Source of the DNA: an uncultured Hyphomicrobiales bacterium
GTDB lineage: Bacteria; Pseudomonadota; Alphaproteobacteria; Rhizobiales; Devosiaceae
Direction of reading: 5' to 3'
Length of the DNA: 46,688 nt
Assembly (NCBI GenBank): GCA_903842455.1
Contig: CAIMLX010000128.1
Span: 1-46,688 of the forward strand
This document shows, in pieces, positions 27,664 through 45,498 of the stretch. Position 1 is the first letter of the stretch. The number at the start of each line of letters is the position of its first letter. The position numbers and the translations under genes were made by a program. The notes below the pieces were generated by a model that made no database searches, was not told where the DNA came from, and saw only the letters and a program-made list of their open reading frames with translations.

Positions 27664-28473
27664 TCAGCCGGCGTAGAGCTGCAGGCCGCCGTCGACGCGG
27701 AGGAGCTGGCCGTGGATGAACTTGGCTTCGGGCGAGCAGAGGAACACCACCGCGTCGGCGATTTCCTCGGGCTCGGCGTAGCGATCCAGCGAGACCTTGT
27801 TGGAGTTCATCTTGTCGGGATCGACGGTGCGGGTGGCCTGGAAGCGGGCGGTCTTGGACGGGCCGGGGCTCACGACGTTGACGCGCACGCCGTGCTCCTT
27901 CACTTCCTCGGCGAGGCAGCGGGTGTAGTGGGTGACGGCCGCCTTGAGGGTCGCATAGATGCCGCCGCCGGAGACGCCGATATGAGCGGCGACCGAAGCG
28001 ATGTTGACGACGATGCCGTGCTGGCGCTCGACCATCTGCGGCACGAAGGCCTGGGTGACCAGCATGGTGCCGATCAGGTTGTTGGTGGTGAGGACCATCA
28101 GATCCTCGTAGGTGATGCCGAGGATGTTGTTGGGCACCGGCTTGCCGCCAGCCGCACCGATGTCGCCGCCGGCGCAGTTGACGAGGATTTCGACCGGGCC
28201 GAACTTCTCCTCGATCTCCTTGCGCATGGCGCTGACCGCGTCGCGATCGCCGATATTGCCGGTGACGCCCATGGAGCGGACGCCGAGGCCCTCGATGGTC
28301 TTGATCATGGCGCCAAGGTTGTCGGCCTCGCCGTACTGGGCGGCCGAGTCCCACTTGAGGTCATGCACCACGACGTCGGCGCCGCGGGCTGCGAGCTTGC
28401 GCGCCATGACGCTGCCGAGGCCACGTCCCGAGCCCGTTACCAGAGCGATTTTACCTGCGAGATCCTTTGCCAC
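27664..28473 (-). CDS. SDR family oxidoreductase
   Basis: A 269-residue short-chain dehydrogenase starting at GTG 28473 with GGAGG six to seven bases upstream. Motifs: NAD(P) loop TGSGRGLG, NCAG in place of NNAG, Ser in NIASVAAHIG and YATLK for the YxxxK pair. A long insert (KWDSAAQYGEADNLGAM) follows strand 2, as in some SDRs acting on longer substrates. It is the last gene of the minus-strand ABC/sugar cluster, 78 bases beyond the isomerase-like gene, so a role in oxidation of a sugar or sugar acid is likely. Substrate unknown. Confidence 0.88.
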   Translation of the reverse strand: MAKDLAGKIALVTGSGRGLGSVMARKLAARGADVVVHDLKWDSAAQYGEADNLGAMIKTIEGLGVRSMGVTGNIGDRDAVSAMRKEIEEKFGPVEILVNCAGGDIGAAGGKPVPNNILGITYEDLMVLTTNNLIGTMLVTQAFVPQMVERQHGIVVNIASVAAHIGVSGGGIYATLKAAVTHYTRCLAEEVKEHGVRVNVVSPGPSKTARFQATRTVDPDKMNSNKVSLDRYAEPEEIADAVVFLCSPEAKFIHGQLLRVDGGLQLYAG

Positions 28474-28551
28474 TTGTGGCCTCCAATTTCTGAAAACTTG
28501 CGTTGGGTCGGGCCGACCTACATCGGGCCCGTCATTATGCGTGTGGCCTGA

Positions 28552-29535
28552 CTACATCAGGCCCTGGGCCTTGAGGTTGGCGGCGCTCTTGCGGTACTGG
28601 CCCAGCTCGTAATCGATCAGCTGGTCGTCGGCATCGAGCTGCCACGGGGTGCGCCATTCCTCGCCCGGCTCGAAGCGGTTCTTCTGCACGGCGAGCAGGC
28701 AGGCGGCGAGTTTCTCCGCCTGCTTGGGGGCGTAGCCGTGCCACCACTCGGGCCTGTAGAGCTTGACGTGACGATCATCGAGCGCACCGATTTCGATGCA
28801 GGCGACCATCTCGTCATTGTGCCTGGCGAGGATGTCGAACATTTCCTTGTGCGGCACACAGCCATCGCCCGACGGGCAGCGGACGAGGCGGAAGCCATCG
28901 GGTTCGATGACCGCGCGGTAGTCCTTGACGTGGCAGTGGCGCACATAGGGGGCGATGACGCGGGCGAAATCGAGCGGGCTTTCGGCCACCGGGAAGGTGT
29001 TGGCCATGTCGAAGACGATACGGACATGCTCGCCGTATTCGTCGCAGAGGCCGACCAGTTCACGCGAGGTGAAATCCTGGTGGTTCTCGATCAGCAGCGT
29101 GACATTGGCCGCTTCGAGCTTGGGCACCACGGCCTCGAGCTTGTCACGCACCGAGTGCACGAGGTCGTGCCACTGCTGGCCGGCGGCAGCGCGGTCGCCG
29201 CAGAGGATGGGGGTCAGCGCGACGCGGATATACTTTGCGTCGAGCGCCTTGGCGCAGCGGATCAGCAGGTCCATGTCGCCGTGCTGCAGGCCGGACGAGA
29301 GCACGCGTTTCCAGCCCAAGGCGTCGAGGCGAACCTTCAGCGCGGCGAGTTCGGCGTCGGACATGGTCTTGAACCAGCCCTCCCACAGCTCGATGGCCTT
29401 GCCGCCGAGTTCCTCGGTGAGCTTGATGAAGCCCTCGAGGCCGGCCCCGTTGGGGTTGTGCCGCGGCGTGCCGGCGCCTTGCAGACCGAGGTAGTAGGTC
29501 AGTCCGTACGGGTTGAGGCCGGTCGTGAGTTTCAT
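28552..29535 (-). CDS. Sugar phosphate isomerase/epimerase-like TIM-barrel protein (AP endonuclease family 2)
   Basis: A 327-residue protein of the xylose-isomerase-like TIM-barrel superfamily. Conserved points are GGKAIELWEGWF, LLIENHQDFTSRELV (Glu metal ligand), VRIVFDMANTFPV (Asp), VRHCHVKDYRAV (His/Asp) and MVACIEIGALDDRHV (Glu), a divalent-metal set. ATG 29535 has a GGGGGGA stretch upstream. It lies between two SDR genes in the sugar cluster and may isomerise or epimerise an intermediate. Family members span epimerases, dehydratases and isomerases, so the exact activity cannot be named. Confidence 0.85.
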   Translation of the reverse strand: MKLTTGLNPYGLTYYLGLQGAGTPRHNPNGAGLEGFIKLTEELGGKAIELWEGWFKTMSDAELAALKVRLDALGWKRVLSSGLQHGDMDLLIRCAKALDAKYIRVALTPILCGDRAAAGQQWHDLVHSVRDKLEAVVPKLEAANVTLLIENHQDFTSRELVGLCDEYGEHVRIVFDMANTFPVAESPLDFARVIAPYVRHCHVKDYRAVIEPDGFRLVRCPSGDGCVPHKEMFDILARHNDEMVACIEIGALDDRHVKLYRPEWWHGYAPKQAEKLAACLLAVQKNRFEPGEEWRTPWQLDADDQLIDYELGQYRKSAANLKAQGLM

Positions 29536-29629
29536 GCAATCCCCCCAGGCAGAATGCTTGTTTGAGCGGTGCAGTTTGCACGGCACGTCGCCGAATGCAC
29601 CCTCGCCTTAAGCATCAACGCCGTCTCAT

Positions 29630-30382
29630 CTAGCGCAGGCCGGCATCGACGGTGATCGACTGCTTGGTGATCATCCGGCTGTCGTCGGACGCGAGGAACA
29701 GCACGGTGCGGGCGATTTCTTCGCCGAGCAGCACGTGGTGCAGGGCCTGGCGCTGGACCACGGCGTCGATCTGCTTGGGATCGGGGAACCACAGGCGCTT
29801 CTGGCGCTCGGTGATCACCGCACCCGGCTCGATCGAGTTGACCCGGATATTGTCTTCGCCGAAGCCGCGGCCGAGGGCACGGGTGAGGCCGATGGTGCCG
29901 GACTTGGCGATCGCATAGACCGGCATGTTCGAGGCGCCACCGCGCCAGGCAATCGAAGAGAAGTTGATGATCGAGCCGCCACCAAGCGCCTTCATCATCG
30001 GGCGGACGGCCTGGGCGGCGAAGAACTGCGGCTTCAGGTTGAGGCCGAGCGAGGCGTCCCAGTAGTCCTCGGTGACAGCATCGATCTCGTGCCGCTGGTC
30101 GTTGGCGGCGTTGTTGACGAGCACGCTGATCGGGCCAAGCCGCTCGCCGGTGACCTCGATGGCAGCCTTGAGCGCCGGGATATCGGTGACGTCGCAACGG
30201 ATGAATTCGGCGCCGGTTTCGGCTGTGAGTGCCCTGCCATCGTCCTCGAGGATATCGACGAAGGCGACCTTGCTGCCCTGGCCGGCAAAGGCGCGGACGA
30301 TGTCGGCACCGATGCCGCTCGCGCCGCCCGTGACGAAGACCACCCGCCCGGCAAGGCTCGGATATTGTGCGAAAGCAGGAAT
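29630..30382 (-). CDS. XylB-like sugar 1-dehydrogenase (SDR), start uncertain
   Basis: A short-chain dehydrogenase resembling Caulobacter D-xylose 1-dehydrogenase and rhizobial galactose dehydrogenases: AGRVVFVTGGASGIG, LVNNAANDQRHEIDAVTEDYWD, INFSSIAWRGG, RQKRLWFPDPKQ, FLASDDSRMIT and a DAGLR end. Such enzymes oxidise an aldose to its lactone. The first ATG/GTG (30343) gives only 237 residues and cuts into the first beta strand; the reading frame upstream codes AFAQYPSLAGR, which matches the family start YPSLKGK. I therefore place the start at an ATT codon at 30382, with AAGGG eight bases upstream, giving 250 residues. No standard start codon is found in that stretch. A rare start or a sequence error is possible. 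Confidence 0.82.
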   Translation of the reverse strand: MPAFAQYPSLAGRVVFVTGGASGIGADIVRAFAGQGSKVAFVDILEDDGRALTAETGAEFIRCDVTDIPALKAAIEVTGERLGPISVLVNNAANDQRHEIDAVTEDYWDASLGLNLKPQFFAAQAVRPMMKALGGGSIINFSSIAWRGGASNMPVYAIAKSGTIGLTRALGRGFGEDNIRVNSIEPGAVITERQKRLWFPDPKQIDAVVQRQALHHVLLGEEIARTVLFLASDDSRMITKQSITVDAGLR

Positions 30383-30405
30383 TTTCTGGACCCTTGAAAT
30401 AGACT

Positions 30406-30433
30406 GCGGGCTCCCTCGGCAGAAGGAGCCCGC
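30406..30433 (-). terminator. Hairpin between ATPase and XylB-like genes
   Basis: GCGGGCTCC and GGAGCCCGC form a perfect 9-bp stem around a 10-base loop just downstream of the ATPase stop (minus strand), followed by CTATTTC. It may be a partial terminator or mRNA-stabilising stem that separates transporter and enzyme genes. Confidence 0.6.
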
Positions 30434-30446
30434 TGGAGGCAGACGA

Positions 30447-31553
<1,107 letters not shown>

Positions 31554-31607
31554 TTGAAATACGCCTCCGAACTTATTTGATCGCGCCGGTCGCCTGACAG
31601 GTTGCGA

Positions 31608-32516
31608 TCATTTGATGGCTCCCTGGGTCAGGCCACGGACGAAGTACTTGCCGCCGAAGAAGTAAACGAGCAGCGGCGGCAGCGCGCCGATCAGCACGGC
31701 GGCACTCATGACGTCGTAGGTCCGCACGGTGGTCCCGCTCATGGAGAGAGCGACCAGCGCGGCAGTGATCGGCTGGTTGGCACCGGAGTTCAGCACGACG
31801 CCGAACAGGTACTCGTTCCAGATACCGGTGAACTGCCAGATGACCGTGACGATGAGGATCGGCGGGGAAATCGGCAGGATGATGCGGTAGAAGATCCGCC
31901 AGAAGCCGGCGCCGTCGATACGGGCCGCCTTCACCAGATCGTCGGGGATGCCGACGAAGTAGTTGCGGCAGAACAGCGTGGTGAACGCCAGACCCTGGAT
32001 GCAGTGCACGAGCACGAGGCCATAGACGGAGTTGGCGAGGCCGATCTTGCCCAGGATGAAGGCCCAGGGGAGCAGTGCGATCTGGCCGGGCATGAACACC
32101 CCAAGCAGCATCATGCCGAAGACGATTTCCGAGCCGCGGAACTTCCACTTCGACAGCACGTAGCCGGTGATGGCGCCCATGGCGGTCGAAATGATCGTGG
32201 CGGGCACGACCATCATGATCGAGTTCCAGAAGTAGCGCTGCATGCCGGCGCATTGTCCGCCGATGCAGAACTCGCTCCAGGCCTGCGGCCAGGCATCGAG
32301 CCGGAAGCTCTGCGGGAAGGCGATGAGGCCGTTCGCGGAGATTTCGGCCAGCGGCCGGAAGGAGTTGAAGAACACGACCCAGAGCGGCATCAGGTAGATG
32401 ATCGCGAAGAAGGTCAGCAGGCCGTAGATCACGATGCGGCTGATCAGGTGCCGGCGCCCTGCCCGTCCGGCCTCGAGGTCGAGGGCGGGAGCGGATGAAA
32501 TAGTTGCATCAGACAT
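31608..32516 (-). CDS. Sugar ABC transporter permease (MalG-like)
   Basis: A 302-residue inner-membrane permease with six helices. The EAA loop reads VKAARIDGAGFWRIFYRIILPIS, the docking site for the ATPase. An N-terminal cytosolic tail precedes the first helix VIYGLLTFFAIIYLMPL. The ATG at 32516 is preceded by AGGGAGG and overlaps the end of the upstream permease gene by eight bases, so the two permeases are translationally coupled. Together with the other permease it forms the channel of a CUT1-family sugar importer. Confidence 0.93.
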   Translation of the reverse strand: MSDATISSAPALDLEAGRAGRRHLISRIVIYGLLTFFAIIYLMPLWVVFFNSFRPLAEISANGLIAFPQSFRLDAWPQAWSEFCIGGQCAGMQRYFWNSIMMVVPATIISTAMGAITGYVLSKWKFRGSEIVFGMMLLGVFMPGQIALLPWAFILGKIGLANSVYGLVLVHCIQGLAFTTLFCRNYFVGIPDDLVKAARIDGAGFWRIFYRIILPISPPILIVTVIWQFTGIWNEYLFGVVLNSGANQPITAALVALSMSGTTVRTYDVMSAAVLIGALPPLLVYFFGGKYFVRGLTQGAIK

Positions 32517-33438
32517 GGACAACCTCCCTGCGACGACGCCAGCCGAGGTACATCGAATAGGGCACGAGGACCACGGCAAGGGCTGCGAGGATCATCATCG
32601 CCGCCGCCGCGCCTTCGCCGATCTGTCCGCGCTGGAACATCAGGTCGTAAACGTAGGTGGCCGGGAATGTGGTGGAGATGCCTGGGCCGGAATTGGTCAG
32701 GGCCACGGCAAGATCGAAGGTCTTGATGGCCGACTGCAACTGCACGACGGCGACGGCGAGGAAGATCGGGGTGATCGAGGGCAGGATCACCTTGCGGTAG
32801 ATGCGGAAGGTCGAGGCGCCATCGATCGAGGCGGCCTTGATGATATCGCCATCGACCGAGCGCAGGCCGGCGAGGAACAGGGCCATGGTGAAGCCGGCGC
32901 TCTGCCAGATGCCGGTGATGATGATGGCCCAGATGGCGTTCTTGCGGTCTGTGGTCAGGGCGAACTCGAAATCGGTCCAGCCCATCGACTGAACCAGAAA
33001 CTGGATGCCGCCCGTGGGGTTGTAGAGCCACTGCCACACGGTACCGGTCACGATGAAGCTGACCGCGAGGGGGTACATGTACATGGTGCGCCAGAAGCTC
33101 TCGGCGCGGATCTTCTGGTCGAGCAGCAGCGCCAGCAGCAGGCCGACGGCCATGGTGGTCAGCACGAAGATGCCGGAGAAGAAGAAGAGGTTGCTGTAGG
33201 CGACGCCCCAGCGGCGGTTGGCCCACAGGCTCGCGTAGTTCTCAAGCCCCTTGAAGCCGTAGGTCGGTAGCAGGGTGGAGTCGCTGAGCGAGATATACAT
33301 CGTCCAGCCGGAGAACACGAAGACGTAGACGAAAGAAGCGACGACAGCCGGCGCGATCACGAAGATCGGCGTCCAGCTTTTCAGCTTCTCCCAAAATGAA
33401 TTTCCGCCCGCCATGGCGGCATATCCGGCGCTGCTCAA
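32509..33438 (-). CDS. Sugar ABC transporter permease (MalF-like)
   Basis: A 309-residue inner-membrane permease with about six helices and the EAA motif KAASIDGASTFRIYRKVILPS. The start is TTG at 33438: GGAGGG lies nine bases upstream, while the in-frame ATG at 33414 has no convincing RBS. Its 3' end overlaps the MalG-like gene. A strong hairpin stands just upstream, after the binding-protein gene, and may lower permease expression relative to the binding protein. Confidence 0.92.
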   Translation of the reverse strand: MSSAGYAAMAGGNSFWEKLKSWTPIFVIAPAVVASFVYVFVFSGWTMYISLSDSTLLPTYGFKGLENYASLWANRRWGVAYSNLFFFSGIFVLTTMAVGLLLALLLDQKIRAESFWRTMYMYPLAVSFIVTGTVWQWLYNPTGGIQFLVQSMGWTDFEFALTTDRKNAIWAIIITGIWQSAGFTMALFLAGLRSVDGDIIKAASIDGASTFRIYRKVILPSITPIFLAVAVVQLQSAIKTFDLAVALTNSGPGISTTFPATYVYDLMFQRGQIGEGAAAAMMILAALAVVLVPYSMYLGWRRRREVVHV

Positions 33439-33466
33439 CGGACCACCCTCCGCAAGAATACAGAAA

Positions 33467-33493
33467 CCGGCTGCGGAGGTACTCCGCAGCCGG
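33467..33493 (-). terminator. Hairpin after the binding-protein gene
   Basis: CCGGCTGCGGA and TCCGCAGCCGG form a perfect 11-bp stem with a 5-base loop, followed on the minus strand by TTTCTGT. Position, right after the binding-protein stop and before the permeases, fits an intra-operon attenuator or 3'-end stabiliser that gives more binding protein than permease. Confidence 0.7.
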
Positions 33494-33505
33494 CCGGTTC
33501 GTTGA

Positions 33506-34780
33506 TTACATCTGTGCTTCGACGCCGTCGGCCATCAGGTTGGCCGCTTCTTCGGACGTCATCTCAGGCGAGTTCACGAACTCGGTGATGAGATCCATCA
33601 TGGCGCCGCGGTACTTCTGCAGCACGGTCATGTTGTGCGCCATCGAACGCACCAGCGTGCCGCCTTCGATCGAGCCCTTCAGCTCGGCCTGGCTCTGCTG
33701 CTGGCAGGCGTTGAAGCCCTGGGTCAGGTCAACGTCGAGGCGCGCCGGGATCGAGCCCTTGGCGATGTTGAACACCGTCTGGAACTCGGGGCTCAGGATG
33801 GTCGAAGCGAGCAGCTTCTGGCCTTCCTGGAAATCCGGATTGTTCTGGTTGAAGAACACCACCGAGTCCGAGTTCAGGATGAAGCCGTTGCCATCCCAGT
33901 CGGTCGGCGACTGGCCGCAGAGGATGTCGGAGCCGGGGGTCTTGCCGAGCGAAACGAGACGGCCGAGTTCCCAGTCGCCCATGATGTAGAACAGCGCGTC
34001 GCCGTTGGACATCATGTTGGCTGCGGTGTCGTAGTCACGGCCGGCGATAGCCGGGTCCATGTACTTGGAGACCATGAGCTTCATCTGGTCGAAGGCCTTG
34101 ATCATTTCCGGCGAGCGCAGGGCGTCGACGTCACCCTCGACGAAGGCCTTGCGGTACAGGTCGATGTCCTGGCCGTAGACGACGGTTTCGAACGTGGTCG
34201 CGTCGGACCAGTCGGCGCTGAAGTGAGCGAGACAGACCTTGCCACCGGCAATAGCCTTGTCACAGGCGGCGTTGAAATCGGCCCAGGTCTTGGGAAGCTC
34301 GGCAACGCCGACGCTTTCCATGGCGGCCTTGTTGCCCCAGATCCAGTTGATGCGGTGGATGTTCATGGGCGCGGCGACCCACTTGCCCTGCGGCTTCATC
34401 ACCGGGAGCAACTCGGGAGCGACGACGGCATCCCAGCCCTCGGTGGTCGCGAGTTCATCCATGTCGGCGGTGCCGCCGGTTGCGGCCCACTGGGCGATTT
34501 CCGGCCCCTTCAGCTGCACGGCAGCCGGGGCGTTGCCGGCGACGACGTCGGCGCGCAGCTTGGCGAGGGTGTTGGCGGTGTGACCGGCAATGGCGGTCTG
34601 CTCCCAGGTGCCGCCCTTGGCGGTGAACATCTCACCGAGCTTGGCAATGGAAGCAGCGTCGTTGCCCGACGCCCACTGGTGCAGCATCAGCACCTTGGGC
34701 TCGGCCATGGCGGTGCCCGACAGCAGGGCAGCCGTAATCGTTGCGGCCGCGCCAAGCGCGACCTTCGACTTGAAGTTCAT
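33506..34780 (-). CDS. Sugar ABC transporter substrate-binding protein (GtsA-like)
   Basis: A 424-residue periplasmic binding protein. The signal peptide is MNFKSKVALGAAATITAALLSGTAMA with cleavage at AMA/EP; ATG 34780 has GGGAGAG upstream. The mature start VLMLHQWASGNDAASIAKLGE and ADVVAGNAPAAVQLKGPEIAQWA resemble GtsA-type glucose/mannose binding proteins of pseudomonads (COG1653). Two Cys pairs (GKVCLAHF, ILCGQSP, FNACQQQ) may form disulfides. First gene of the uptake operon and divergent from the ROK repressor; regulation by the palindrome at 34891-34906 is likely. The true ligand is unknown and, given the GH172 gene nearby, may be an oligosaccharide. Confidence 0.92.
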   Translation of the reverse strand: MNFKSKVALGAAATITAALLSGTAMAEPKVLMLHQWASGNDAASIAKLGEMFTAKGGTWEQTAIAGHTANTLAKLRADVVAGNAPAAVQLKGPEIAQWAATGGTADMDELATTEGWDAVVAPELLPVMKPQGKWVAAPMNIHRINWIWGNKAAMESVGVAELPKTWADFNAACDKAIAGGKVCLAHFSADWSDATTFETVVYGQDIDLYRKAFVEGDVDALRSPEMIKAFDQMKLMVSKYMDPAIAGRDYDTAANMMSNGDALFYIMGDWELGRLVSLGKTPGSDILCGQSPTDWDGNGFILNSDSVVFFNQNNPDFQEGQKLLASTILSPEFQTVFNIAKGSIPARLDVDLTQGFNACQQQSQAELKGSIEGGTLVRSMAHNMTVLQKYRGAMMDLITEFVNSPEMTSEEAANLMADGVEAQM

Positions 34781-34890
34781 GTCTTTTCTCTCCCAGTGCG
34801 CCCGTGCCCCATTCCGACTCTTATGGTCGGCCCCTGTGGCCACTTGCGCTTTTCTCGTGCCGGTGTGCATCCTCCGCCACCGGTCGCATT

Positions 34891-34906
34891 AGTTCTATGG
34901 TGAACT
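34891..34906. promoter_or_regulatory. Candidate ROK operator in the divergent promoter
   Basis: AGTTC-tatggt-GAACT, a palindrome with matched T and A also two bases outside each arm. It lies between the binding-protein and ROK genes, 37 bases from the ROK start. A second palindrome, AAGTTCGAACTT (34949-34960), covers the first ROK codons. Both share the GTTC/GAAC half-site. The pair suggests autoregulated control of the divergent operon. Confidence 0.6.
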
Positions 34907-34942
34907 TATTCTTCTTGTCAACGCGCTGAGGGGAGCGGTGAT

Positions 34943-36148
34943 GTGAACAAGTTCGAACTTAAATCACTTCTGGATGACAGTGCTTTGGGCACGCCGTCCG
35001 GACGCATCGTCCGGATGCTCACCGAGCGCGGCGCCATGAGTGCTGCCCAGTTGTCGCGCCTGACCGGATTGGCCAAGTCGACGGTCTCCACCGCCGTGGC
35101 GGAACTGCGCCGATCCGGCATGGTGCTGGATGCCGGCAACGAGTCGGCTGGCGGTGTCGGTCGCCCCGCCACCGCCCTTACGCTCAACCCCGGCGCCGGC
35201 ACCTGCGTCGGCATCCTGATCGGGCAGACGGAAATCCAGCTCATCGTCGCGGACGTGGCGCACACAGTCCTCGCTGACAAGATCGTGGTGATGGAAGACG
35301 GCTATACCCCCGCCATGGCGGCGGACCTTATCCGCCGACTTGTCGCCGAAGCCTATGAAAATCAATGGCAATCGCCCAGCGGCCTGCTTGGGGTCGGGGT
35401 GGCGGTGGGCGGACCGGTGAACCCGGTCAACGGCAAGATGCTGCGCGCCGGCGGCATGCCGGACTGGGCCGGCGTCGATATCAAGGAACTGCTGGGGCCG
35501 CTGTTCGACGGCGTTCCGATCTTCTGCGACAACGAGAGCAACTGCTCGGCCATCGCGGAGATGACATGGGGCGCGGCGCAGGGGCACGACGACTTCGTGG
35601 TCTACACGCTCGACCTTGGGGTGGGCGGCGCGATCGTGTCGGGCGGCCGGGTGCTGCGCGGCGTGGCCGGCGGGGCCGGCGAATTCGGGCATGTGGTGGT
35701 GGACCCCAACGGGCCGCTCTGCCGCTGTGGCAACCGCGGCTGCATCGAGGTCTACGCCAGCTTCCGCGACCTGCTGTCGGAAGCGGAGGCGCATTTCGAT
35801 CGGCCGCTGCGAATTACCGACGTGGTAAAGATGGCGCGGGGCGGCGACGTCTTCTGCCGGTCGCTGGTCGAGCGGGCCGGCGAGGCGGGCGGCTATGGCC
35901 TGGGGCTGATCGGATCGGTGTTCAACCCGCCGCTGGTGGTGGTGAGCGGACGGCTTGCCCTGACCGGCGACATGCTGATGGCCCCGCTGACGCGCAGTTA
36001 CGAGCGCTACACGCTGATCAAGCACGACGACGTACCGGACGTGGCGCGGACGGTGTTCCGGGCCAGCACCTTTACCGACGGCGCCTGCCTCGGCGCGGTG
36101 GGGCTGGTGCTGCGCCATCATGGCCGCCTGCTCGGACAGGCAGCATAG
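34943..36148 (+). CDS. ROK family transcriptional repressor
   Basis: A 401-residue regulator. N-terminal winged helix-turn-helix at about residues 20-75 (SGRIVRMLTERGAMSAAQLSRLTGL, then KSTVSTAVAELRRSGMV), followed by a sugar-kinase-like ROK domain with DLGVGGAIVSGG (phosphate loop), EFGHVVVDPNG and the zinc motif LCRCGNRGCIEVYAS. ROK repressors bind a sugar or sugar phosphate and release DNA. The start is GTG at 34943 with GGGGAG upstream. Divergent from the ABC operon and tail-to-tail with the UPF0261 gene (stops adjacent), so it probably controls both sides of the locus. Confidence 0.93.
   Translation: MNKFELKSLLDDSALGTPSGRIVRMLTERGAMSAAQLSRLTGLAKSTVSTAVAELRRSGMVLDAGNESAGGVGRPATALTLNPGAGTCVGILIGQTEIQLIVADVAHTVLADKIVVMEDGYTPAMAADLIRRLVAEAYENQWQSPSGLLGVGVAVGGPVNPVNGKMLRAGGMPDWAGVDIKELLGPLFDGVPIFCDNESNCSAIAEMTWGAAQGHDDFVVYTLDLGVGGAIVSGGRVLRGVAGGAGEFGHVVVDPNGPLCRCGNRGCIEVYASFRDLLSEAEAHFDRPLRITDVVKMARGGDVFCRSLVERAGEAGGYGLGLIGSVFNPPLVVVSGRLALTGDMLMAPLTRSYERYTLIKHDDVPDVARTVFRASTFTDGACLGAVGLVLRHHGRLLGQAA
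34949..34960. promoter_or_regulatory. Second GTTC/GAAC palindrome at the ROK start
   Basis: AAGTTCGAACTT is a perfect 12-bp palindrome inside codons 3-6 of the ROK gene, next to an overlapping GAAC-aa-GTTC (34945-34954). It shares its half-site with the palindrome at 34891-34906 but without the 6-base spacer. A repressor bound here would block its own transcript. Confidence 0.4.
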
Positions 36149-37348
36149 TCACGCCCCTGAAATCGCTCTGAAATTCTCCACCAGCGCGGCAGCGAAGGCC
36201 GGGTCGTTGATATGGGCGTCCAGTTCCAGCAGTTGCCGGTTTGCCGCGGGCTGCCAGCCCTGCCGGATGGCAGCGAACAGCGCCGTGTCGGCTACCGGAT
36301 CGTGGAAGGGCTGACCCGGCCTGTCGATGGCGGAGACCCCCTGCAGCGGCAGCAGGAAGCGGACCGGGCCCGGCATGCGGTTGATCCGGGAGACGATGAA
36401 CTCGCCGATGCGACGGCTCTCGTCGGGGGTGGTGCGCATCAGGGAGACCTGGGCGTTGTGGACGTGGAAGTGCCGGCCGGCAAACTGCGCCGGCACGGTT
36501 TGTCTCGCGCCGAAATTGACCATGTCCACCGCGCCGACCGAACCGACATAAGGCAGGCCGGTGCGAATGACGGCGCCGAAGCGATCTTCGGTGCAGGGGA
36601 AGATACCGCCGACCAGCAGGTCCGCGACCTCGGTGGTGGTGATGTCGATCAGCCCCGCGACGAGGCGGGACTCGGCCAGCTTTTCCATCGACTGACCTCC
36701 CGTGCCGGTGGCGTGGAAGGTGTAGACCTCGTGGCTCGCCTCCATGGCTTCGCGGACCGAAGTGGCGCAGGCGGTGGTGACACCGAACATGGTGAGGCCG
36801 AGGCCCGGCTTGTCGTTTGCCGCCTCGGGGACGGCGCCGAGCGCCATGCCGGCTGCCGCGTTGGCGGCGTTGCCGATCACCCGGCGCGAGATGGCATTGA
36901 GGCCGGCGACATCAACCACCGAATACATCATGGCGATGTCGTTCGGCCCCACATAGGGCGCGACATTGGCCGAGGCGACGGTGGAGACCATGAGCTTAGG
37001 CACGCCGATGGGCAGCGCCCGCATCGCCTCGGTGACGATGGCGGTGTTGCCGGAACCGCCAAGGCCGAGCACTGCGCCGATATCGTTGCGGGCGCCGAGC
37101 CAGGCGGTCAGCGCCTTTGCCATCGCCGAGACCGCCTGCCCCCGGTCGGCGAGGCCGAGAACCGCTGCGGCGCCTTGCGGATGGTGGGCGGCGATTTCCA
37201 CGGACGAAATGTCCGCCCCCTGCCCCGACAACTGCGTTCCGACATCGACCAGGACTGTTTGTGCGCCGGCGGCGCGAACCCGCTCGACGGCGTAGCGCAG
37301 TTCGGCGCCCTTGGTATCAAGGGTGCCGATCACGTAGACCTTCTTCAT
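36149..37348 (-). CDS. Tm-1-like ATP-binding domain protein (UPF0261)
   Basis: A 399-residue protein of the UPF0261/Tm-1 family. It begins MKKVYVIGTLDTKGAELRYA and contains GLGGSGNTAIVTEAMRALPIG, VSTVASANVAPYVGPNDI and FGVTTACATSVREAME, the characteristic ATP-binding and conserved blocks. Plant Tm-1 inhibits tobamovirus replication; the bacterial role is unknown. In many genomes it neighbours a PEP-hydrolase-like TIM-barrel gene; that partner is absent here and the gene instead follows GH172 with 52 bases between, so it probably belongs to the same operon. A CCGGCC/GGCCGG stem lies in the gap. Confidence 0.9.
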   Translation of the reverse strand: MKKVYVIGTLDTKGAELRYAVERVRAAGAQTVLVDVGTQLSGQGADISSVEIAAHHPQGAAAVLGLADRGQAVSAMAKALTAWLGARNDIGAVLGLGGSGNTAIVTEAMRALPIGVPKLMVSTVASANVAPYVGPNDIAMMYSVVDVAGLNAISRRVIGNAANAAAGMALGAVPEAANDKPGLGLTMFGVTTACATSVREAMEASHEVYTFHATGTGGQSMEKLAESRLVAGLIDITTTEVADLLVGGIFPCTEDRFGAVIRTGLPYVGSVGAVDMVNFGARQTVPAQFAGRHFHVHNAQVSLMRTTPDESRRIGEFIVSRINRMPGPVRFLLPLQGVSAIDRPGQPFHDPVADTALFAAIRQGWQPAANRQLLELDAHINDPAFAAALVENFRAISGA

Positions 37349-37400
37349 GCTGTCCCTCCGGCCGACCCTCCCCGGCCGGCTTTGAGCTGACGATAGCCGG

Positions 37401-38534
37401 TCAGATCACTTCGAGGTAGTCGCGGTCTTTGATCTGCGGAAAGGGTACTGTCGGGAGAGTCTGGTACCAGAAGGCAACGGAGGCGATGTCGTCCTGCAGG
37501 GGCAGGTAGCGGCGATCGGTCTTTTCGGTGCGCCAGCCAAGCGCCTGGATGGTGACGCGCAGGTCCTCTTCGAAGCGGATCGGGTCGGTCAGGTGCCAGC
37601 GGTACATGCCGAAGCGCTGCTGGCTGCGGTAGGTACCGTCGGGGCGAAGCACCTGCGGCAGGCCGGAATACGGCGTGGTGAACTCGCGGTAGGCGCGCTC
37701 CATCGTCGGATCGAGTTCGGCGCCGCCGCCATCGAAATTATAGGCACCGCAGAAGTAGTCCTCGGTGCCGGTGCCACAGATGGTGGGGAACTCGCCGTCG
37801 CCATCCATGAAGAACTTGATCTCGCCCTCGCCCCACCAGCTCGAATTGTTGACGCCCCAGGCCATGTAGGTGCCGACATACTGGCCCTGCCCGCGCACCC
37901 CATCGAGGATGGTGTAGTCCTCCTTGAACGGCAGCGGGTTGGTGCGGCGGAACTGGGCGTGGAAATAGGCCGCGTCGTCCGGGACATCGGTGAGGGTGTA
38001 ATTGATCTGGTAGTAGATGATGCCGTGGCTCTGAGGATCGCGGTTCTCGATCTCGATGCGGGCGGCCTTGCCGAACGGCATCTCCCAGTAGCAGTTGAAG
38101 GCGCGGCCGGGATTGACGCAGACGGCGAGCGAACTGACCTGGGCGTACTGGTTCCAGCCCGAGCAGAAGAAGTCTCCAACTGGTGCTTCAACCGAGGGGT
38201 GCTCCTGGTCGTCCCACCAGATGCGGAGAATGAGGTCGCGCCAGCGCAGATTGGCGGTGGTGAGCCAGATCTGCTGGATGGCGCCCGAGCCCCGGATCTC
38301 GCCGAGCACGCGCTTTTCGCCCGGTTCGATGCGGATGGAGGGGGAGATCTTGACGCCCAGACCAGTGCCGTCCTTGCCGAGGCCGCGGGCGTGGATCTTG
38401 CCAGTGCCCTCGGTGGCCATGCCGCCGCGGCCCTTCTCGCCGGTGAAGTTCTCGGGTGAAATGGACCGGGTTTTCGCGCTGCTGAGCCGGTAGATGTTGG
38501 ACAGGTTCACGCCAAGTCCATGGAATTCTGCCAC
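37401..38534 (-). CDS. GH172 (DUF2961) glycoside hydrolase
   Basis: A 377-residue protein of the DUF2961 family, now glycoside hydrolase family 172, whose known members act on alpha-D-fructofuranosides/difructose anhydride and on D-arabinan. The core motif runs through SSWWGEGEIKFF, MDGDGEFPTICGTG and TEDYFCGAYNF, containing the Glu residues that serve as catalytic pair in the family (GEGE and GTED). Two jelly-roll domains are expected. No signal peptide, so it acts in the cytoplasm on imported oligosaccharides. The start is GTG at 38534 with GGAGG five bases upstream; no ATG fits the frame. It precedes the UPF0261 gene and lies divergent to a glycosyltransferase. Confidence 0.85.
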   Translation of the reverse strand: MAEFHGLGVNLSNIYRLSSAKTRSISPENFTGEKGRGGMATEGTGKIHARGLGKDGTGLGVKISPSIRIEPGEKRVLGEIRGSGAIQQIWLTTANLRWRDLILRIWWDDQEHPSVEAPVGDFFCSGWNQYAQVSSLAVCVNPGRAFNCYWEMPFGKAARIEIENRDPQSHGIIYYQINYTLTDVPDDAAYFHAQFRRTNPLPFKEDYTILDGVRGQGQYVGTYMAWGVNNSSWWGEGEIKFFMDGDGEFPTICGTGTEDYFCGAYNFDGGGAELDPTMERAYREFTTPYSGLPQVLRPDGTYRSQQRFGMYRWHLTDPIRFEEDLRVTIQALGWRTEKTDRRYLPLQDDIASVAFWYQTLPTVPFPQIKDRDYLEVI

Positions 38535-40806: not shown

Positions 40807-43800
40807 TCAGGGCCTGGGCTTGTCACCCCCGTCCGGAAAATCGAACTCCGGCAGGTCCATCTCGGGCAACTCGATATTGATCTCGGGTTCGAGGCAGCGA
40901 TTGCCGTCGGCGATCATCCCCTTGGGGCACACGCAGGCAGTACCCCTCCGGTTGGGCACGGCCGGGGCACGGCACTGCAGTGCCTCATCCGTCTGTTCGT
41001 CCACCACCTCAACGCAACGCTTGCCCTGGGCAACAGTGCCCTTGGGGCAGATGCAGGCGGTGCCGGCCTTGTTCGGAACGGCGGGCGCGTTGCAGGAGAC
41101 CGGATCAGGCTTGTCCGCCGCGCAGCCTCTCGGTCCGGCGATGGACTGGTCTGGACAGATGCAGGCGGTTCCGGTGCTGTTGGACTTAGCGGGGGCACGG
41201 CACTGAAGCTCGTCATCCTGCTCGTCCGCCACCTCGACGCACCGCTTGCCCTCGGCAACAGTGCCCTTGGGGCAGATGCAGGCGGTGCCAGCCTTGTTGG
41301 GAACGGCGGGCGCGTTGCAGGAGATTGGATCGGGCTCGTCCGGCGCGCAGCCTCTGGGGCCGGCGATGGACTGGTCTGGACAGATGCACGCCGTGCCGGT
41401 GCTATTGGACTGGGCGGGTGCCTTGCACTGCAGGTCGGGAATGCAGACACCCCGCTTGTTCAGCACCTCGCCATCGCCGCATTGCGGTTCTGGTTCGCCC
41501 TCGACAGGCTGCACTATCTGCTGGGGCGGGGCAGCGACGCTGAAGGGCGCGCAGTTGCCCCAGGCCCCACCATATGGAGACGTCGATGGATTGACGTCGA
41601 TCATTGCCGCGTTGAAGTCCGCCGGTTGAGGTGTCTTGCCGTCGGCGACAAAGCAATTGGTGTAGCCGCTGCCGGCGGCAAGGGGCGCCGCCAGCGTGAC
41701 CGTGAACGAGATGCTCTGGTTGACTGGCAACGTCAGGTTGGCAGCACAGGTAGCCGGCGAGGTGGTGCCGCTCCAGCCGGAACTCCAGGCGCAGATTGGT
41801 GGCACGGCGGTATTGGAGATCGAACCGATCGTCGCCGGGACTGGTGTTGTTCCGTTGCTGATGCCATCGCCGAACAGCACCGGTCCGTTGAAGTCCTTAC
41901 ACTGCGCCTTGACGGTGATCGTGAAGGTGCAGGCGGGGCTGCCACCGGGCACGCAGACTTCCGGGAAATCCGTCTTCTTGGTCACCCACAGGTACGAATT
42001 GCCGCAGTCTGTGGGGACGGTCGGCCCCCTGTCCTGGACGCAGATGCTGCTCGAGGCCTCGTCGTGTTCATGCACCGGCCCGGTCACCGGGTTGGCCATG
42101 TTGTTGGGCACGGAGTTCACCGCGCTGTCCGACGCCGTTACCTGGGCGAAGTTGGAGAAACACCGCCATTGCTCGGTCGGTGCAGGATTGGGCGACACGG
42201 AGACCTGAAAGGTCAGCGTCGCCGTGGCGCCGGCCGCTAGGCTGGGAATGGTCCAGCTGATGGTGCTGCCCGTTACCGTAGCCGGCTGGCTGAACCCGAT
42301 GGGTGTGTTCAGCTCCGGGGGCAGCGCGTCCTCGACCGTCACGTTGGTAAGCGCGACCGAAGCGGTGTTGGTCACCGACAGGGTGACGGTCACCTGCGGA
42401 TCGGCCGTCAGTCCGTGGAAGTTGATGTAGTTCGGCCCGATCTGCTTTTTCAGATAGAGGTCGGGACACAATCCTTGCCCCAGCGCCGTCAGGTCGGCCC
42501 CGAGACTACTGTAGCTGCTCGCCTGCGTGGTGGTGCCGAGCAGTGCATTGAGATGGGTCGACACGTTACCGATGCCGATGCCGACGATGGGCGTGCCGGT
42601 GGCATAGATGGCGTTGACGGCAGAGATCGCCTCGTTGGTCGCGAGCACGGAATCCGTCGTGTAGGTGACGGCGTTGCCGCCATCGAGATAAGCCGTCGGC
42701 GTACCGTCGGTGATGAAGACGATGATGGTATTGGGGCTGGGTAGCAAGCCGAGCGCCGCGTTCATCGCCGCTTCCCAGTTGGTGCCGCCACCGGCGTTGG
42801 GATTGTAGCCGGCATTGACCGATCCGTAGGTTGCGGTCGCCATCGGATATGACACCGTGGCGGCGTCGGAGAAGCGGATCACCGCGGCCTGCGAGCCGTT
42901 GGTGTTGAACACGCTTGCGGCATTGGCCAGCGCATTGGTGACGTACCAGGTAGCGTTGGCATCAGCGATCGAGCGGGATTCGTCGACAACGAAGATGACG
43001 TTCACGCCGCAAGTGGCGTTCAGCGGCGGCGGATCGTCCACGTCCTCAAACGGATCATCGGGGCCCTCGACGCCGGCACAGGCGCGGTTGTTGCCGGGTT
43101 CGGTATCCTCATAGCCCGAGGCGAGGGCAATGCCGACCTCGGCGCAGTTCTCGAATGGTCCCGCGCCCTCGGTGGAGGCGGTCAACACCACCTGGCTGGT
43201 GGCGCCGGTCGCCATCACCCCGGTGCCGGTGTACTGGCAGGTCAGCGTTGCCGGTCCGATGATTGGAAGCGGCGTACAGGCCCAGTCGGAGCCGGTCGCG
43301 GCGCTGATGGTCATGCCGGCGGGGATCGCGTCGGTGACCGTCACCGCTGCGGTGGCATCGAAGGGCGCGCCAACATTGGTCACTACCAGCGTGAAGGCGC
43401 CGGTGCCGTCGACCGGTCCTTGCGTCTCCGCAAAGCTCTTGGTGATCGAAACATCGACCGGGTCTGAATCCTCGCCGGTGAACTCCGTGCAGCTCTCGTC
43501 CAGCTCGACCCCATCGAGCAGAAGCGTGGCGCAGTTGGTGGTCTCGACGAGAAAACCGGGATCGGGGAGTTCTACTTCGACATCAATGGTCGAGCTGTTG
43601 CCGGCCACGCTCAGCCCTGGCCAGTCGATCGAGCAGATGGCGGGATCGGTAGCGGCGAACGGCGGCTGGTCGCAGGTCCAGGCATCGGCTGAGCCGACAG
43701 ACACAATCGTGTCGTTGAACGGCGTGCTCGAGCCGAACACCACGCTCTCGTTGACCGACAGCAGGCCGGTGAACGGTACGCCGTTGGACGTCACGTTGAT

Positions 43801-45498
43801 GTGGCACTGGCAGCGCGGCTTGCCGGTCAACGGGTCGATGGTGCAGGCTTCGCAGGTCTTCTCGATCTTGAATTCCGGCTGGGGGCACTCCTCCAGGTCG
43901 GTGCAAAGTTCCGGATCGTCCGGTCCATCTGGCGGATCGCCGCTGATATAGGGCGGATCGAGCGGATAGCCGGCGCCGCCATACTCGGACACATAGGGCA
44001 GGTCTCCACCACACCCGGTGCGATAGACCGCCACATCGCCGACATGCCCGTTCACCTCGGCATCGTCGGCGCGCGGCTCAAGATCGACCATGTAGCTCGC
44101 CCAGGGCGGCGTGTTCTCGGGCTTGACCGGGCCGGCCGGCATCACCTGCAGGCCGTCGATCGCCAACGGCCCTCCGGCCAGCAACTCATCCGCCAGATCG
44201 GGCGCCAGCCGCAGGTCGTCGCCGGTTGTAAGCAGTGATGCCTCGCAGTAGCCGAGGTCGAGCAGGCCTTCGCGGTTGAAGCCGTAGTCGAGATCGACGC
44301 CGCCACTGGTCTGACGATGCTCACCGCCGAAACCGATCGAATACTCCTCCGGTTCCTCGATCCAGCGGCTTGGCGTTTCCGGATCGTCCGGGCTCTCGAG
44401 CCAGTAGCGATAGAGCCGCGACTGTCCAGGATCTGCAAAGCCGGTGTAGTCGTAGGTCGAGCTGATCGCGCCTCGCTGAGCGAGGATCATCGCGCCCTTC
44501 TCGGTGAAGACGATGTCGCTGACCGGCAGTTTCTCCGGGCGCTTGGGGACATCCAGTTCCCACTGCGGATCGTCGCCAAAGGCGCCGGTCTCCGCGTCGA
44601 GGCCAATCGACCAGATCTGGCTGTCATCGACCACAGCGTAATAGAGGCGGCTGTCGTGGACGGCGAGGCCCCACACCTGACGGTCAGGCGCTGCATAGCC
44701 CCAGCTGTCCGGGTCTTCAGTGTCAAAATCGCCGCGGGTGATGTCGAGCGCGCCGGCAGGGTCGTATTCGACGATGGGCAAGTCAGCCGCGGCCCGACCA
44801 GTGGTGCCGTGATCGAAGTAGTCGAGTTCGTTTCCGTCGAGATCAAAGCGGTGGATCATGCCGGTGGCACGATCAGAAACGAAAAGCTGCTGGTGCAGCG
44901 GATCAAAGGCGAGATTGCCGAGGCCGGGACCGGGGTTCTCATCTCCATCGAGGATCACATTGGCAAACAGCGACACTTCGCCGGTTTCGCCGTCGATCTT
45001 CCAGATGCTGCCAGGTCCGCCATCCGGACCCGGGCCGAACAGCCCTTCCATGAACTGTGCATCAGGCTCGCCCGTCTCGATCCGTTCTGGCCGGCCATCG
45101 TCGTCGGCGTCAGGCGCGACAACGGGCAGGCCGTATGCGGATGTCGCCGCCAGATAGATGTTCGGCATCTCCGCGTCATCGAGGGCCACGCCGAAGACCT
45201 GCCCAACATCGCGAGCCAGCACCTCGTGACGGCTGTCGCCCGCCCAGGCGCGCCCATCCCAGATGAAGCCGGGAGCGGCGACGCCGAGCACCCGCGCCGA
45301 GATGCCGTCAAGGTCGATAAGGGTCTCGTCGATGAGCTCGATGCCGGGGGGCAGGCTTTCAGGGTCGGGTGCCACCGTGCCGGAGAAGCCGGTAACGACC
45401 GCGTCGCCCAATTCAAGCAGTGGCCGCTGCGCGTCCTGCCCTTGAGCAGCGAACGCCAAGAAAAGCGATAGACCGACTGCAGCACCAGCTCTGAACAC
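40807..45498 (-). CDS. Giant secreted multidomain protein: DUF11-like, vWA, tandem Cys-rich repeats
   Basis: A 1563-residue exported protein starting at GTG 45498 (AGGA upstream). Signal peptide core AAVGLSLFLAFAA. Residues about 30-470 look like a beta-propeller with repeated SDRATGMIHRFDLDG-type and DDDGRPERI elements. Residues about 560-880 carry Cys-rich and DUF11-like Ig folds (VTNVGAPFDATAAVTVTDAIP). A vWA domain follows with MIDAS FVVDESRSIADAN (DxSxS), FSDAATV and VFITDGTP. Then another DUF11-like domain (TNTASVALTNVTVEDALPP) and, from about residue 1375, two tandem 75-residue units and a half unit, each holding CxAPAxxN, GTACICP and GxxC motifs. The tail is acidic/Pro-rich (NIELPEMDLPEFDFPDG). 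The repeats at DNA level have a 225-bp period. An adhesion or surface-matrix role is plausible; no sorting signal is seen. Confidence 0.85.
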   Translation of the reverse strand: MFRAGAAVGLSLFLAFAAQGQDAQRPLLELGDAVVTGFSGTVAPDPESLPPGIELIDETLIDLDGISARVLGVAAPGFIWDGRAWAGDSRHEVLARDVGQVFGVALDDAEMPNIYLAATSAYGLPVVAPDADDDGRPERIETGEPDAQFMEGLFGPGPDGGPGSIWKIDGETGEVSLFANVILDGDENPGPGLGNLAFDPLHQQLFVSDRATGMIHRFDLDGNELDYFDHGTTGRAAADLPIVEYDPAGALDITRGDFDTEDPDSWGYAAPDRQVWGLAVHDSRLYYAVVDDSQIWSIGLDAETGAFGDDPQWELDVPKRPEKLPVSDIVFTEKGAMILAQRGAISSTYDYTGFADPGQSRLYRYWLESPDDPETPSRWIEEPEEYSIGFGGEHRQTSGGVDLDYGFNREGLLDLGYCEASLLTTGDDLRLAPDLADELLAGGPLAIDGLQVMPAGPVKPENTPPWASYMVDLEPRADDAEVNGHVGDVAVYRTGCGGDLPYVSEYGGAGYPLDPPYISGDPPDGPDDPELCTDLEECPQPEFKIEKTCEACTIDPLTGKPRCQCHINVTSNGVPFTGLLSVNESVVFGSSTPFNDTIVSVGSADAWTCDQPPFAATDPAICSIDWPGLSVAGNSSTIDVEVELPDPGFLVETTNCATLLLDGVELDESCTEFTGEDSDPVDVSITKSFAETQGPVDGTGAFTLVVTNVGAPFDATAAVTVTDAIPAGMTISAATGSDWACTPLPIIGPATLTCQYTGTGVMATGATSQVVLTASTEGAGPFENCAEVGIALASGYEDTEPGNNRACAGVEGPDDPFEDVDDPPPLNATCGVNVIFVVDESRSIADANATWYVTNALANAASVFNTNGSQAAVIRFSDAATVSYPMATATYGSVNAGYNPNAGGGTNWEAAMNAALGLLPSPNTIIVFITDGTPTAYLDGGNAVTYTTDSVLATNEAISAVNAIYATGTPIVGIGIGNVSTHLNALLGTTTQASSYSSLGADLTALGQGLCPDLYLKKQIGPNYINFHGLTADPQVTVTLSVTNTASVALTNVTVEDALPPELNTPIGFSQPATVTGSTISWTIPSLAAGATATLTFQVSVSPNPAPTEQWRCFSNFAQVTASDSAVNSVPNNMANPVTGPVHEHDEASSSICVQDRGPTVPTDCGNSYLWVTKKTDFPEVCVPGGSPACTFTITVKAQCKDFNGPVLFGDGISNGTTPVPATIGSISNTAVPPICAWSSGWSGTTSPATCAANLTLPVNQSISFTVTLAAPLAAGSGYTNCFVADGKTPQPADFNAAMIDVNPSTSPYGGAWGNCAPFSVAAPPQQIVQPVEGEPEPQCGDGEVLNKRGVCIPDLQCKAPAQSNSTGTACICPDQSIAGPRGCAPDEPDPISCNAPAVPNKAGTACICPKGTVAEGKRCVEVADEQDDELQCRAPAKSNSTGTACICPDQSIAGPRGCAADKPDPVSCNAPAVPNKAGTACICPKGTVAQGKRCVEVVDEQTDEALQCRAPAVPNRRGTACVCPKGMIADGNRCLEPEINIELPEMDLPEFDFPDGGDKPRP
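41000..41440. repeat. 225-bp tandem repeat inside the giant gene
   Basis: Two nearly identical 225-bp copies code 75 residues each; for example ATGGACTGGTCTGGACAG occurs at 41141 and 41366. A shortened third copy is at the 3' side (about 40900-41000). Slippage or recombination here would change the number of Cys-rich modules. Confidence 0.75.

What the first reader, a model, noticed from the sequence alone, without database searches (positions are those of the whole stretch)
27664..38534. Candidate furanosyl-oligosaccharide utilisation locus: GH172, UPF0261, ROK, CUT1 importer, XylB-like dehydrogenase, TIM-barrel isomerase, SDR
GH172 is a recently defined family acting on fructofuranosyl or D-arabinofuranosyl linkages. 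Its cytoplasmic location beside a sugar importer, a ROK repressor and an aldose 1-dehydrogenase suggests import of a furanosyl oligosaccharide and oxidative catabolism of the released sugar. The UPF0261 protein, of unknown bacterial function, is tied to the same operon, which gives it a testable context.
Basis: inference. Interest (0 to 1): 0.72.

Follow-up and report, generated by a model that had tools for sequence, protein, structure and literature searches.

The report
Sugar-use module beside unrelated GH172 pair
What looked like one gene cluster for eating unusual furanose sugars is a sugar import-and-oxidation module with a separate two-gene insert beside it, and the module's first oxidising enzyme appears to be read from AUU, a start codon bacteria very rarely use.

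Summary
(A) ROK | SBP-PermA-PermB-ATPase-SDR1-TIM-SDR2 is a stand-alone module: it is complete, with neither GH172 nor UPF0261 beside it, in six mapped loci of the same genus and of other families of the order. Its binding protein is of the glucose-binding family (8 of 12 glucose contacts identical), which points to a monosaccharide. (B) GH172-UPF0261 is a separate two-gene unit, next to A only here and in one close Devosia: 1 of 80 GH172 loci, and 2 of the 17 Devosiaceae genomes holding both families. Elsewhere GH172 follows its own LacI-CUT1 importer in 9 of 11 family loci mapped; nine mapped relatives of this UPF0261 sit beside PF09370. The GH172 is a sound member nearest to exo-alpha-D-arabinofuranosidase ExoMA1. 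Unexpected: SDR1, the C1-dehydrogenase, has no ATG/GTG/TTG start. Its conserved N-terminus begins at ATT (ATC in one genome) behind a Shine-Dalgarno-like site throughout a 13-genome clade, while TIM and SDR2 start normally. This points to an AUU start, possibly IF3-controlled as in infC and sigR.

The parts
37401..38534 (-). GH172 (DUF2961); GTG start; acid/base E236, nucleophile E258, D259
   Evidence: PF11175 8.5e-101; 406 bits to 8ic8 ExoMA1, 142 to 7v1v alphaFFase1; alignment A1 set by motif against residues in PMC8605356
36149..37348 (-). UPF0261 (Tm-1-like) protein, 52 nt after GH172, without its usual PF09370 partner beside it
   Evidence: PF06792 + PF23189, NF002673 over cut-off, PDB 3wry/9mpy; only PF06792 match in the genome; only PF09370 match lies on contig C140
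34943..36148 (+). ROK-family regulator, divergent from the importer operon
   Evidence: PF00480 and HTH matches; kept with the module in other genomes
33506..34780 (-). Solute-binding protein of the glucose-binding family; probable start ATG 34780 (by eye) inside the 454-aa ORF
   Evidence: 312 bits to 8hqq, 267 to 5dvf; contacts mapped
32509..33438 (-). CUT1 permease A (TTG start as listed)
   Evidence: PF00528
31608..32516 (-). CUT1 permease B (probable ATG start at 32516)
   Evidence: PF00528; relatives' proteins align from there
30447..31553 (-). UgpC/MalK-type ATPase
   Evidence: NF008653 465 bits, cut-off 432
30406..30433 (-). 12-bp hairpin between ATPase stop and SDR1 Shine-Dalgarno-like site
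   Evidence: terminator-like sites as a class not above shuffles; 71-nt fold -28.2 kcal/mol, z -2.14, 6 of 200 shuffles as good
30380..30382 (-). Proposed AUU start codon of SDR1; SD-like TTCAAGGGT, spacer 7
29630..30382 (-). SDR1, XylB-like aldose 1-dehydrogenase (250 aa from ATT; mechanical ORF 29630-30343)
   Evidence: NF053674 271 bits from GTG, 286 bits with the extension, model 4-251 of 252
28552..29535 (-). TIM, xylose-isomerase-like barrel; E151, D177, H203, E249 invariant in nine sequences
   Evidence: PF01261; A2; weak profile hits to 8z1i Art22, IolE, AsbF, D-psicose 3-epimerase
27664..28473 (-). SDR2, second short-chain dehydrogenase, paired with TIM
   Evidence: PF13561/PF00106; TIM-SDR2 kept in L261 and L264, where SDR1 and this importer are absent

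Best explanation
The stretch is two neighbouring units. Unit A (ROK | SBP-PermA-PermB-ATPase-SDR1-TIM-SDR2) imports a monosaccharide-sized sugar through a glucose-family binding protein. SDR1 then oxidises it at C1, and TIM (a metal-dependent isomerase, epimerase or dehydratase) and SDR2 process the product, with a second oxidation and no kinase in the unit; ROK is the likely sugar-sensing repressor. Unit B (GH172-UPF0261) is a two-gene insert placed downstream of ROK in the lineage of this species: a cytoplasmic alpha-D-arabino- or alpha-D-fructofuranosidase and a UPF0261 protein separated from its PF09370 partner. Shown: gene content, family membership, module conservation, lack of wider synteny. 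Inferred: substrate, reaction order, regulation, insertion. In Unit A, SDR1 translation most likely starts at AUU, which would keep its synthesis low or make it sensitive to initiation factor 3.
For: Module A is complete with the same order, and no GH172 or UPF0261 beside it, in G244, G105, G087 and in same-genus G758, G766, G772; all eight genes rechecked by tblastn. B is next to A only in the window and L094/G755. In single-contig genome G758 GH172, UPF0261 and TIM lie at C1:1018081, C1:522195 and C1:3486094. GT4 and CAP genes follow SDR2 in G758, G766 and G772 as here, while ROK has an epimerase gene beside it in G758 and UPF0261-GH172 here. GH172 follows LacI-SBP-PermA-PermB in 9 of 11 other Devosiaceae loci mapped. 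SBP: 8 of 12 glucose contacts identical. AUU: of 22 genomes, ATT in 13 and ATC in 1; one more keeps ATT but has ATG two codons earlier; canonical in the other 7.
Against: Adjacency of A and B is kept in two genomes, so co-use in this species is possible. GH172 could act on an imported disaccharide if the altered pocket (W35 to Q65, E41 to D71, W250 to Y280) admits one. G707 has GH172 and a distant UPF0261 within about 8 kb. In 10 of the 17 genomes with both genes they lie on different contigs of drafts, which does not exclude linkage. No substrate, expression or N-terminal data exist; no ROK operator was found.
Confidence: 0.75

Rival explanations
1. One reading: one locus for import of a furanosyl oligosaccharide, cytoplasmic cleavage by GH172 and oxidation of the released D-arabinose or fructose by SDR1, TIM and SDR2.
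For: Adjacency in window and L094; GH172 nearest to ExoMA1, whose Microbacterium cluster also has an ABC importer and an intracellular GH172 (PMC10509167 passages); SDR1 is of the family of D-xylose and sulfoquinovose 1-dehydrogenases.
Against: Module A is complete without GH172 beside it in six mapped loci; GH172 has its own importer in 9 of 11 Devosiaceae loci mapped; SBP is of the glucose-binding family; separate transcription units by strand.
Confidence: 0.15
2. Oxidative decarboxylating pathway in module A: SDR1 gives aldonate, SDR2 a 2-ketoaldonate, TIM an OtnI-like 2-keto/3-keto isomerisation, then loss of CO2 to a ketose one carbon shorter (a refinement of the best explanation).
For: No dehydratase or kinase in the module; TIM keeps four residues that I recall as the superfamily's metal site; in G784 a barrel nearest to D-psicose 3-epimerase (NF051856 144 bits, cut-off 300) precedes SDR1-TIM-SDR2; in G774 TIM-SDR2 stands by a Peripla_BP_4 protein and an extended SDR with weak GalE and D-erythronate dehydrogenase scores (42 and 37 bits, below cut-offs).
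Against: TIM has no match over cut-off to any NCBIfam model, OtnI included; best profile hit is Art22, 36 bits over part of the chain.
Confidence: 0.2
3. SDR1 starts at GTG 30343 and the upstream conserved stretch is untranslated.
For: GTG is the first canonical codon of the frame in the window.
Against: No canonical codon lies within 16 codons from the ATT/ATC in G766 and G764; the pattern FAxYPSL continues in genomes that start ATG/GTG/TTG just before it; the extension adds 14 bits to the XylB model.
Confidence: 0.08
4. SDR1 is made by frameshift or read-through from the ATPase gene.
For: In 8 of the 15 genomes the ATPase stop lies 9-13 nt before the ATT/ATC.
Against: The gap runs from 9 to 194 nt and all three phases occur among the 15; each has a Shine-Dalgarno-like site before the codon.
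Confidence: 0.03

Closest known systems
GH172 ExoMA1 (exo-alpha-D-arabinofuranosidase, PDB 8ic8) and its D-arabinan cluster in Microbacterium
   Same: Family, catalytic motif WWGEGE...GTGTEDYF, GH172 without signal sequence near an ABC importer
   Different: No PF13810 (GH183) found in the genome, but the controls of that search were silent; GH116 not searched; different SBP family; UPF0261 alongside
Glucose-binding proteins of Pseudomonas (5dvf, 8hqq; that 5dvf is the CSV86 protein is recalled, and fits the published residue numbers)
   Same: Sequence family; 8 of 12 contacts
   Different: W35 to Q, E41 to D, W250 to Y, one contact in or beside a gap; followed by SDR1-TIM-SDR2
XylB D-xylose 1-dehydrogenase; sulfoquinovose 1-dehydrogenase (9gwu)
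   Same: SDR aldose 1-dehydrogenase family
   Different: Below the XylB equivalog cut-off; AUU start; no lactonase or dehydratase in the module
UPF0261-PF09370 (Tm-1/TBST) pair
   Same: UPF0261 full length; nearest PF09370-paired relatives 77-79% identical
   Different: PF09370 not adjacent here
Non-canonical starts: infC (ATT), Streptomyces sigR (GTC), Borrelia pncA (AUU)
   Same: Non-canonical start, in sigR conserved in 32 of 34 Streptomyces (PMC5472188 passages), missed by annotation
   Different: Here in a catabolic dehydrogenase inside an operon; no experimental proof

Membership tests
GH172 | DUF2961 domain | tested here: met
   PF11175 over cut-off; PDB hits to GH172 structures
GH172 | Acid/base and nucleophile Glu, neighbouring Asp | tested here: met
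   E236, E258, D259 invariant in 13 sequences of A1, placed by motif against E270/E291/D292 of alphaFFase1
GH172 | Ca ligand Asn272 of alphaFFase1 | tested here: not met
   Glu238 here; ExoMA1, an active member, also has Glu there, so it does not define the family. Asn31 and Asp33 not tested
GH172 | alpha-D-Araf or alpha-D-Fruf hydrolysis | not testable with these tools
   needs enzyme assay
D-arabinan utilisation cluster | GH183 endo-D-arabinanase in cluster or genome | tested here: inconclusive
   none found, but controls silent
D-arabinan utilisation cluster | GH116 exo-beta-D-arabinofuranosidase | not tested
   no search made
XylB D-xylose 1-dehydrogenase (NF053674) | score over equivalog cut-off 400 | tested here: not met
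   271-286 bits
Glucose-binding protein (GltB) | twelve glucose contacts | tested here: not met
   8 identical, 3 changed, 1 in or beside a gap
UPF0261-PF09370 pair | adjacent PF09370 gene | tested here: not met
   only match on another contig
Non-canonical start gene | no canonical start at the conserved N-terminus, SD-like site, conserved codon | tested here: met
   no shuffle control for the SD-like sites
Non-canonical start gene | IF3-dependent translation | not testable with these tools
   needs infC fidelity mutant and reporter

The most novel reading that the evidence does not exclude
In a Devosia clade the first enzyme of a sugar oxidation operon is initiated at a conserved AUU (or AUC), so that initiation factor 3 sets the ratio of dehydrogenase to importer. 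This would extend IF3-sensitive start codons from infC and a stress sigma factor to a carbon catabolic enzyme.
Probability: 0.4. Interest if true: 0.6.

Novelty: new member of a known kind. Interest (0 to 1): 0.42.

Why it matters
It stops a tempting operon reading: GH172 and UPF0261 should not be given functions from this importer. It also defines a portable import-oxidation module with an uncharacterised TIM-SDR2 pair, and offers a clear, cheap test case of a clade-wide AUU start in a metabolic gene, which standard gene finding misses.

Tried and rejected
One-operon reading: rejected on strand order and synteny. UPF0261 function from literature: 'UPF0261' (5 papers listed), 'Tm-1-like ATP-binding' (none) and the four-term search (14 papers listed); in those listings and in passages of PMC5028733 I saw no bacterial function, only co-occurrence with TBST (491 of 504 genomes). 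TIM identity by PDB phmmer (none), profile (weak) and NCBIfam (nothing over cut-off). Plasmid records with TIM: 76 records, all under 60% identity, not used further. Class-wide TIM search: the window's genome alone of 385. Promoter scan: 0 sites against 1.6 in shuffles; terminator-like sites: 4 against 6.4, so neither class is above chance. Palindrome AAGTTCGAACTT at 34949-34960, inside the ROK start: noted, not tested. Literature on AUU starts; in those listings I saw no report for a Devosia gene or a sugar dehydrogenase. Of seven papers (PMC10509167, PMC10115798, PMC8605356, PMC7927077, PMC5472188, PMC13398362, PMC5028733) I saw abstracts or passages found by terms, not whole texts; the rest as listings.
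Full report
What is there. Strands suggest three transcription units, not one: GH172-UPF0261 on the minus strand, ROK on the plus strand converging on UPF0261, and SBP-PermA-PermB-ATPase-SDR1-TIM-SDR2 on the minus strand, divergent from ROK. The source is a Devosia: the closest record is a Devosia equisanguinis MAG, GH172 97% identical, L094.

GH172. PF11175 matches; phmmer gives 406 bits to ExoMA1 (8ic8) and 142 bits to alphaFFase1 (7v1v). Motif alignment places acid/base E236, nucleophile E258 and D259, invariant in 13 aligned sequences (A1), against E270, E291 and D292 of alphaFFase1 (passages of PMC8605356). Passages of PMC10509167 and PMC10115798 show characterised relatives to be exo-alpha-D-arabinofuranosidases; ExoMA1 prefers alpha-D-Araf over alpha-D-Fruf. 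D-arabinofuranosidase is the likelier activity, untested here. The genome has one PF11175 match.

Synteny. In an order sample GH172 homologues occur in 18 of 297 genomes, the window's included. None of 18 regions fetched from the 17 others showed UPF0261 or TIM on the ORF maps; the ORF picker missed GH172 itself in 4 of these 18, and one region is a 4-kb contig. In genome contigs 579 relatives were found and the best 80 kept. The window UPF0261 is found in one of these 80 (L094), the window SBP in the same one, TIM in none; L094's contig ends after SDR1. Only 47 of the 80 loci have more than 5 kb on both sides, so some misses are edge effects. In the family search (136 genomes, E up to 1e-60) GH172 is in 38, UPF0261 in 28, TIM in 24, the window's genome included. 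By my reading of those lists 17 genomes hold both GH172 and UPF0261: adjacent in 2 (G000, G755); about 8 kb apart in G707, where the UPF0261 is a distant one (43%) in a unit with a CUT1 importer and a Gfo/Idh protein; 40 kb or more apart on one contig in 4 (G704, G748, G758, G770); and on different contigs in 10, which in drafts is inconclusive. In 11 other Devosiaceae loci chosen from these lists (window and L094 not counted), GH172 follows LacI-SBP-PermA-PermB in 9, 32-43 nt after PermB in 8 and about 1.2 kb after it in one; in 4 of 11 order-level loci an SBP-PermA-PermB set precedes it (L029 and L035-L038 were not counted). G755 holds such a copy in addition to the UPF0261-linked one, and a third, divergent one. 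This supports an oligosaccharide-import role for GH172 in general, with another importer than the one in this window.

UPF0261. Homologues occur in 103 of 297 order genomes. Four of four downstream neighbours scanned in relatives were PF09370 (L074, L075, L076, L079), and five of five Devosiaceae relatives of 77-79% identity have a PF09370 homologue adjacent by BLAST, and a CUT1 permease gene close by (L255-L259). FCD-type GntR proteins were found beside it in L074, L076 and L257 and a Gfo/Idh protein in L257. In this genome the only PF06792 is the window's and the only PF09370 is on contig C140, beside a gene that looks TetR-like by eye and a CUT1-type importer by BLAST. UPF0261 and PF09370 are known to co-occur (PMC5028733 passages). 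The link to GH172 is therefore local and probably recent.

The import-oxidation module. TIM is rare: 5 of 297 order genomes (window included) and only the window's in 385 class genomes, but 24 of 136 in the family. ROK | SBP-A-B-ATPase-SDR1-TIM-SDR2 is complete in G244, G105, G087 and G758, G766, G772; tblastn finds all eight genes and no GH172 or UPF0261 in those six 20-kb loci. TIM-SDR2 stands without SDR1 or this importer in G770 and G774, SDR1-TIM-SDR2 without it in G784, and TIM alone in G202. GT4 and CAP genes follow SDR2 in G758, G766 and G772 as here, while the ROK side differs, which fits an insertion of GH172-UPF0261. The SBP is nearest to sugar-binding proteins 8hqq and 5dvf; that 5dvf is the Pseudomonas CSV86 glucose-binding protein is recalled. 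Of the twelve contacts listed in PMC7927077 (passages), eight are identical, three differ (W35 to Q65, E41 to D71, W250 to Y280) and one falls in or beside a gap; Q65 and D71 are constant in seven sequences, window included. A monosaccharide near glucose, not glucose itself, is my inference. TIM keeps E151, D177, H203, E249 in nine sequences, which I recall as the metal site of this superfamily.

The AUU start. The listed SDR1 ORF starts at GTG 30343, but the frame continues upstream as I-P-A-F-A-Q-Y-P-S-L-A-G-R. Among 22 genomes in which SDR1 was found, the codon at the conserved upstream position is ATT in 13 (window, G755, G756, G758, G759, G762, G764, G765, G767, G768, G769, G772, G777) and ATC in G766. 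G771 keeps ATT but has ATG two codons earlier. Seven others start ATG (5), GTG or TTG at or one codon after that position. Of the 24 family genomes with TIM, four had no SDR1 in the fetched 4 kb (G770, G774, G688, G760) and G202 none close in 20 kb. In the 15 with ATT or ATC a Shine-Dalgarno-like site lies 5-8 nt before the codon; it was picked as the best 9-mer, without shuffle control. In 12 of the 15 no canonical codon lies in frame between the codon and the upstream stop (or contig edge); the exceptions are G769 (TTG, 21 codons up), G768 (TTG, 6 codons up, before the SD) and G771. The gap from the ATPase stop is 9-13 nt in 8 of the 15 and up to 194 nt in others, in all three phases, which speaks against frameshift or read-through. 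ATT is 5-12% of Ile codons in ten of eleven stretches counted and 31% in G772's, so an ordinary internal Ile would mostly be ATC. A tree of the 22 proteins joins 13 same-genus genomes with support 97/97, all ATT except ATC in G766; G777 and G771 lie outside, so the wider history is unresolved. As controls in the same operon, TIM starts ATG in 20 of 21 and GTG in one, and SDR2 canonically in 20 of 20 found (one locus ends before it), a few with a shift of one to three codons read by eye. Adding the extension raises the XylB-model score from 271 to 286 bits and fills model positions 4-251 of 252. The genome's infC has ATT CGT CGT CCA behind AAGGA, compatible with the usual ATT start, but an ATG follows four codons later. 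Precedents: Streptomyces sigR with GTC, conserved in 32 of 34 species and repressed by IF3 (PMC5472188 passages), and Borrelia pncA with AUU (PMC13398362 passages). Initiation at AUU here is an inference from sequence; control by IF3 is a hypothesis.

Verdict. Observation confirmed; the single furanoside locus is not supported; two units, both of known kinds; one unexpected conserved start codon worth testing.

Noticed in passing
window 30380-30382 (-): Conserved AUU/AUC start of the XylB-like dehydrogenase across a Devosia clade; gene finders will truncate it to GTG 30343.
   Followed up: yes
window 30406-30433 (-): 12-bp hairpin between ATPase stop and SDR1 SD (z -2.14); in 8 of 15 genomes the ATPase stop lies only 9-13 nt before the start, leaving no room for it.
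   Followed up: partly
window 33465-33495 (-): 14-bp hairpin with T-containing tail just after the SBP gene (such sites as a class not above shuffles); may lower expression downstream of SBP.
   Followed up: no
L176 64-900 (-): The genome's only PF09370 gene stands at a contig edge beside a TetR-like gene and a CUT1-type importer with two ATPases (by BLAST), away from UPF0261.
   Followed up: partly
window 40807-45498 (-): 1563-aa protein with DUF11 and VWA domains and repeated Cys-containing C-terminal segments (by eye).
   Followed up: no
L267 (G707): GH172 with divergent LacI, then TetR, CUT1 importer, Gfo/Idh and a distant UPF0261 (43%) with no PF09370 homologue seen in the 20 kb.
   Followed up: partly
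L253 (G755 C116): A second GH172 with its own importer plus a third, divergent one (46-48%) in the D. equisanguinis-like genome.
   Followed up: no
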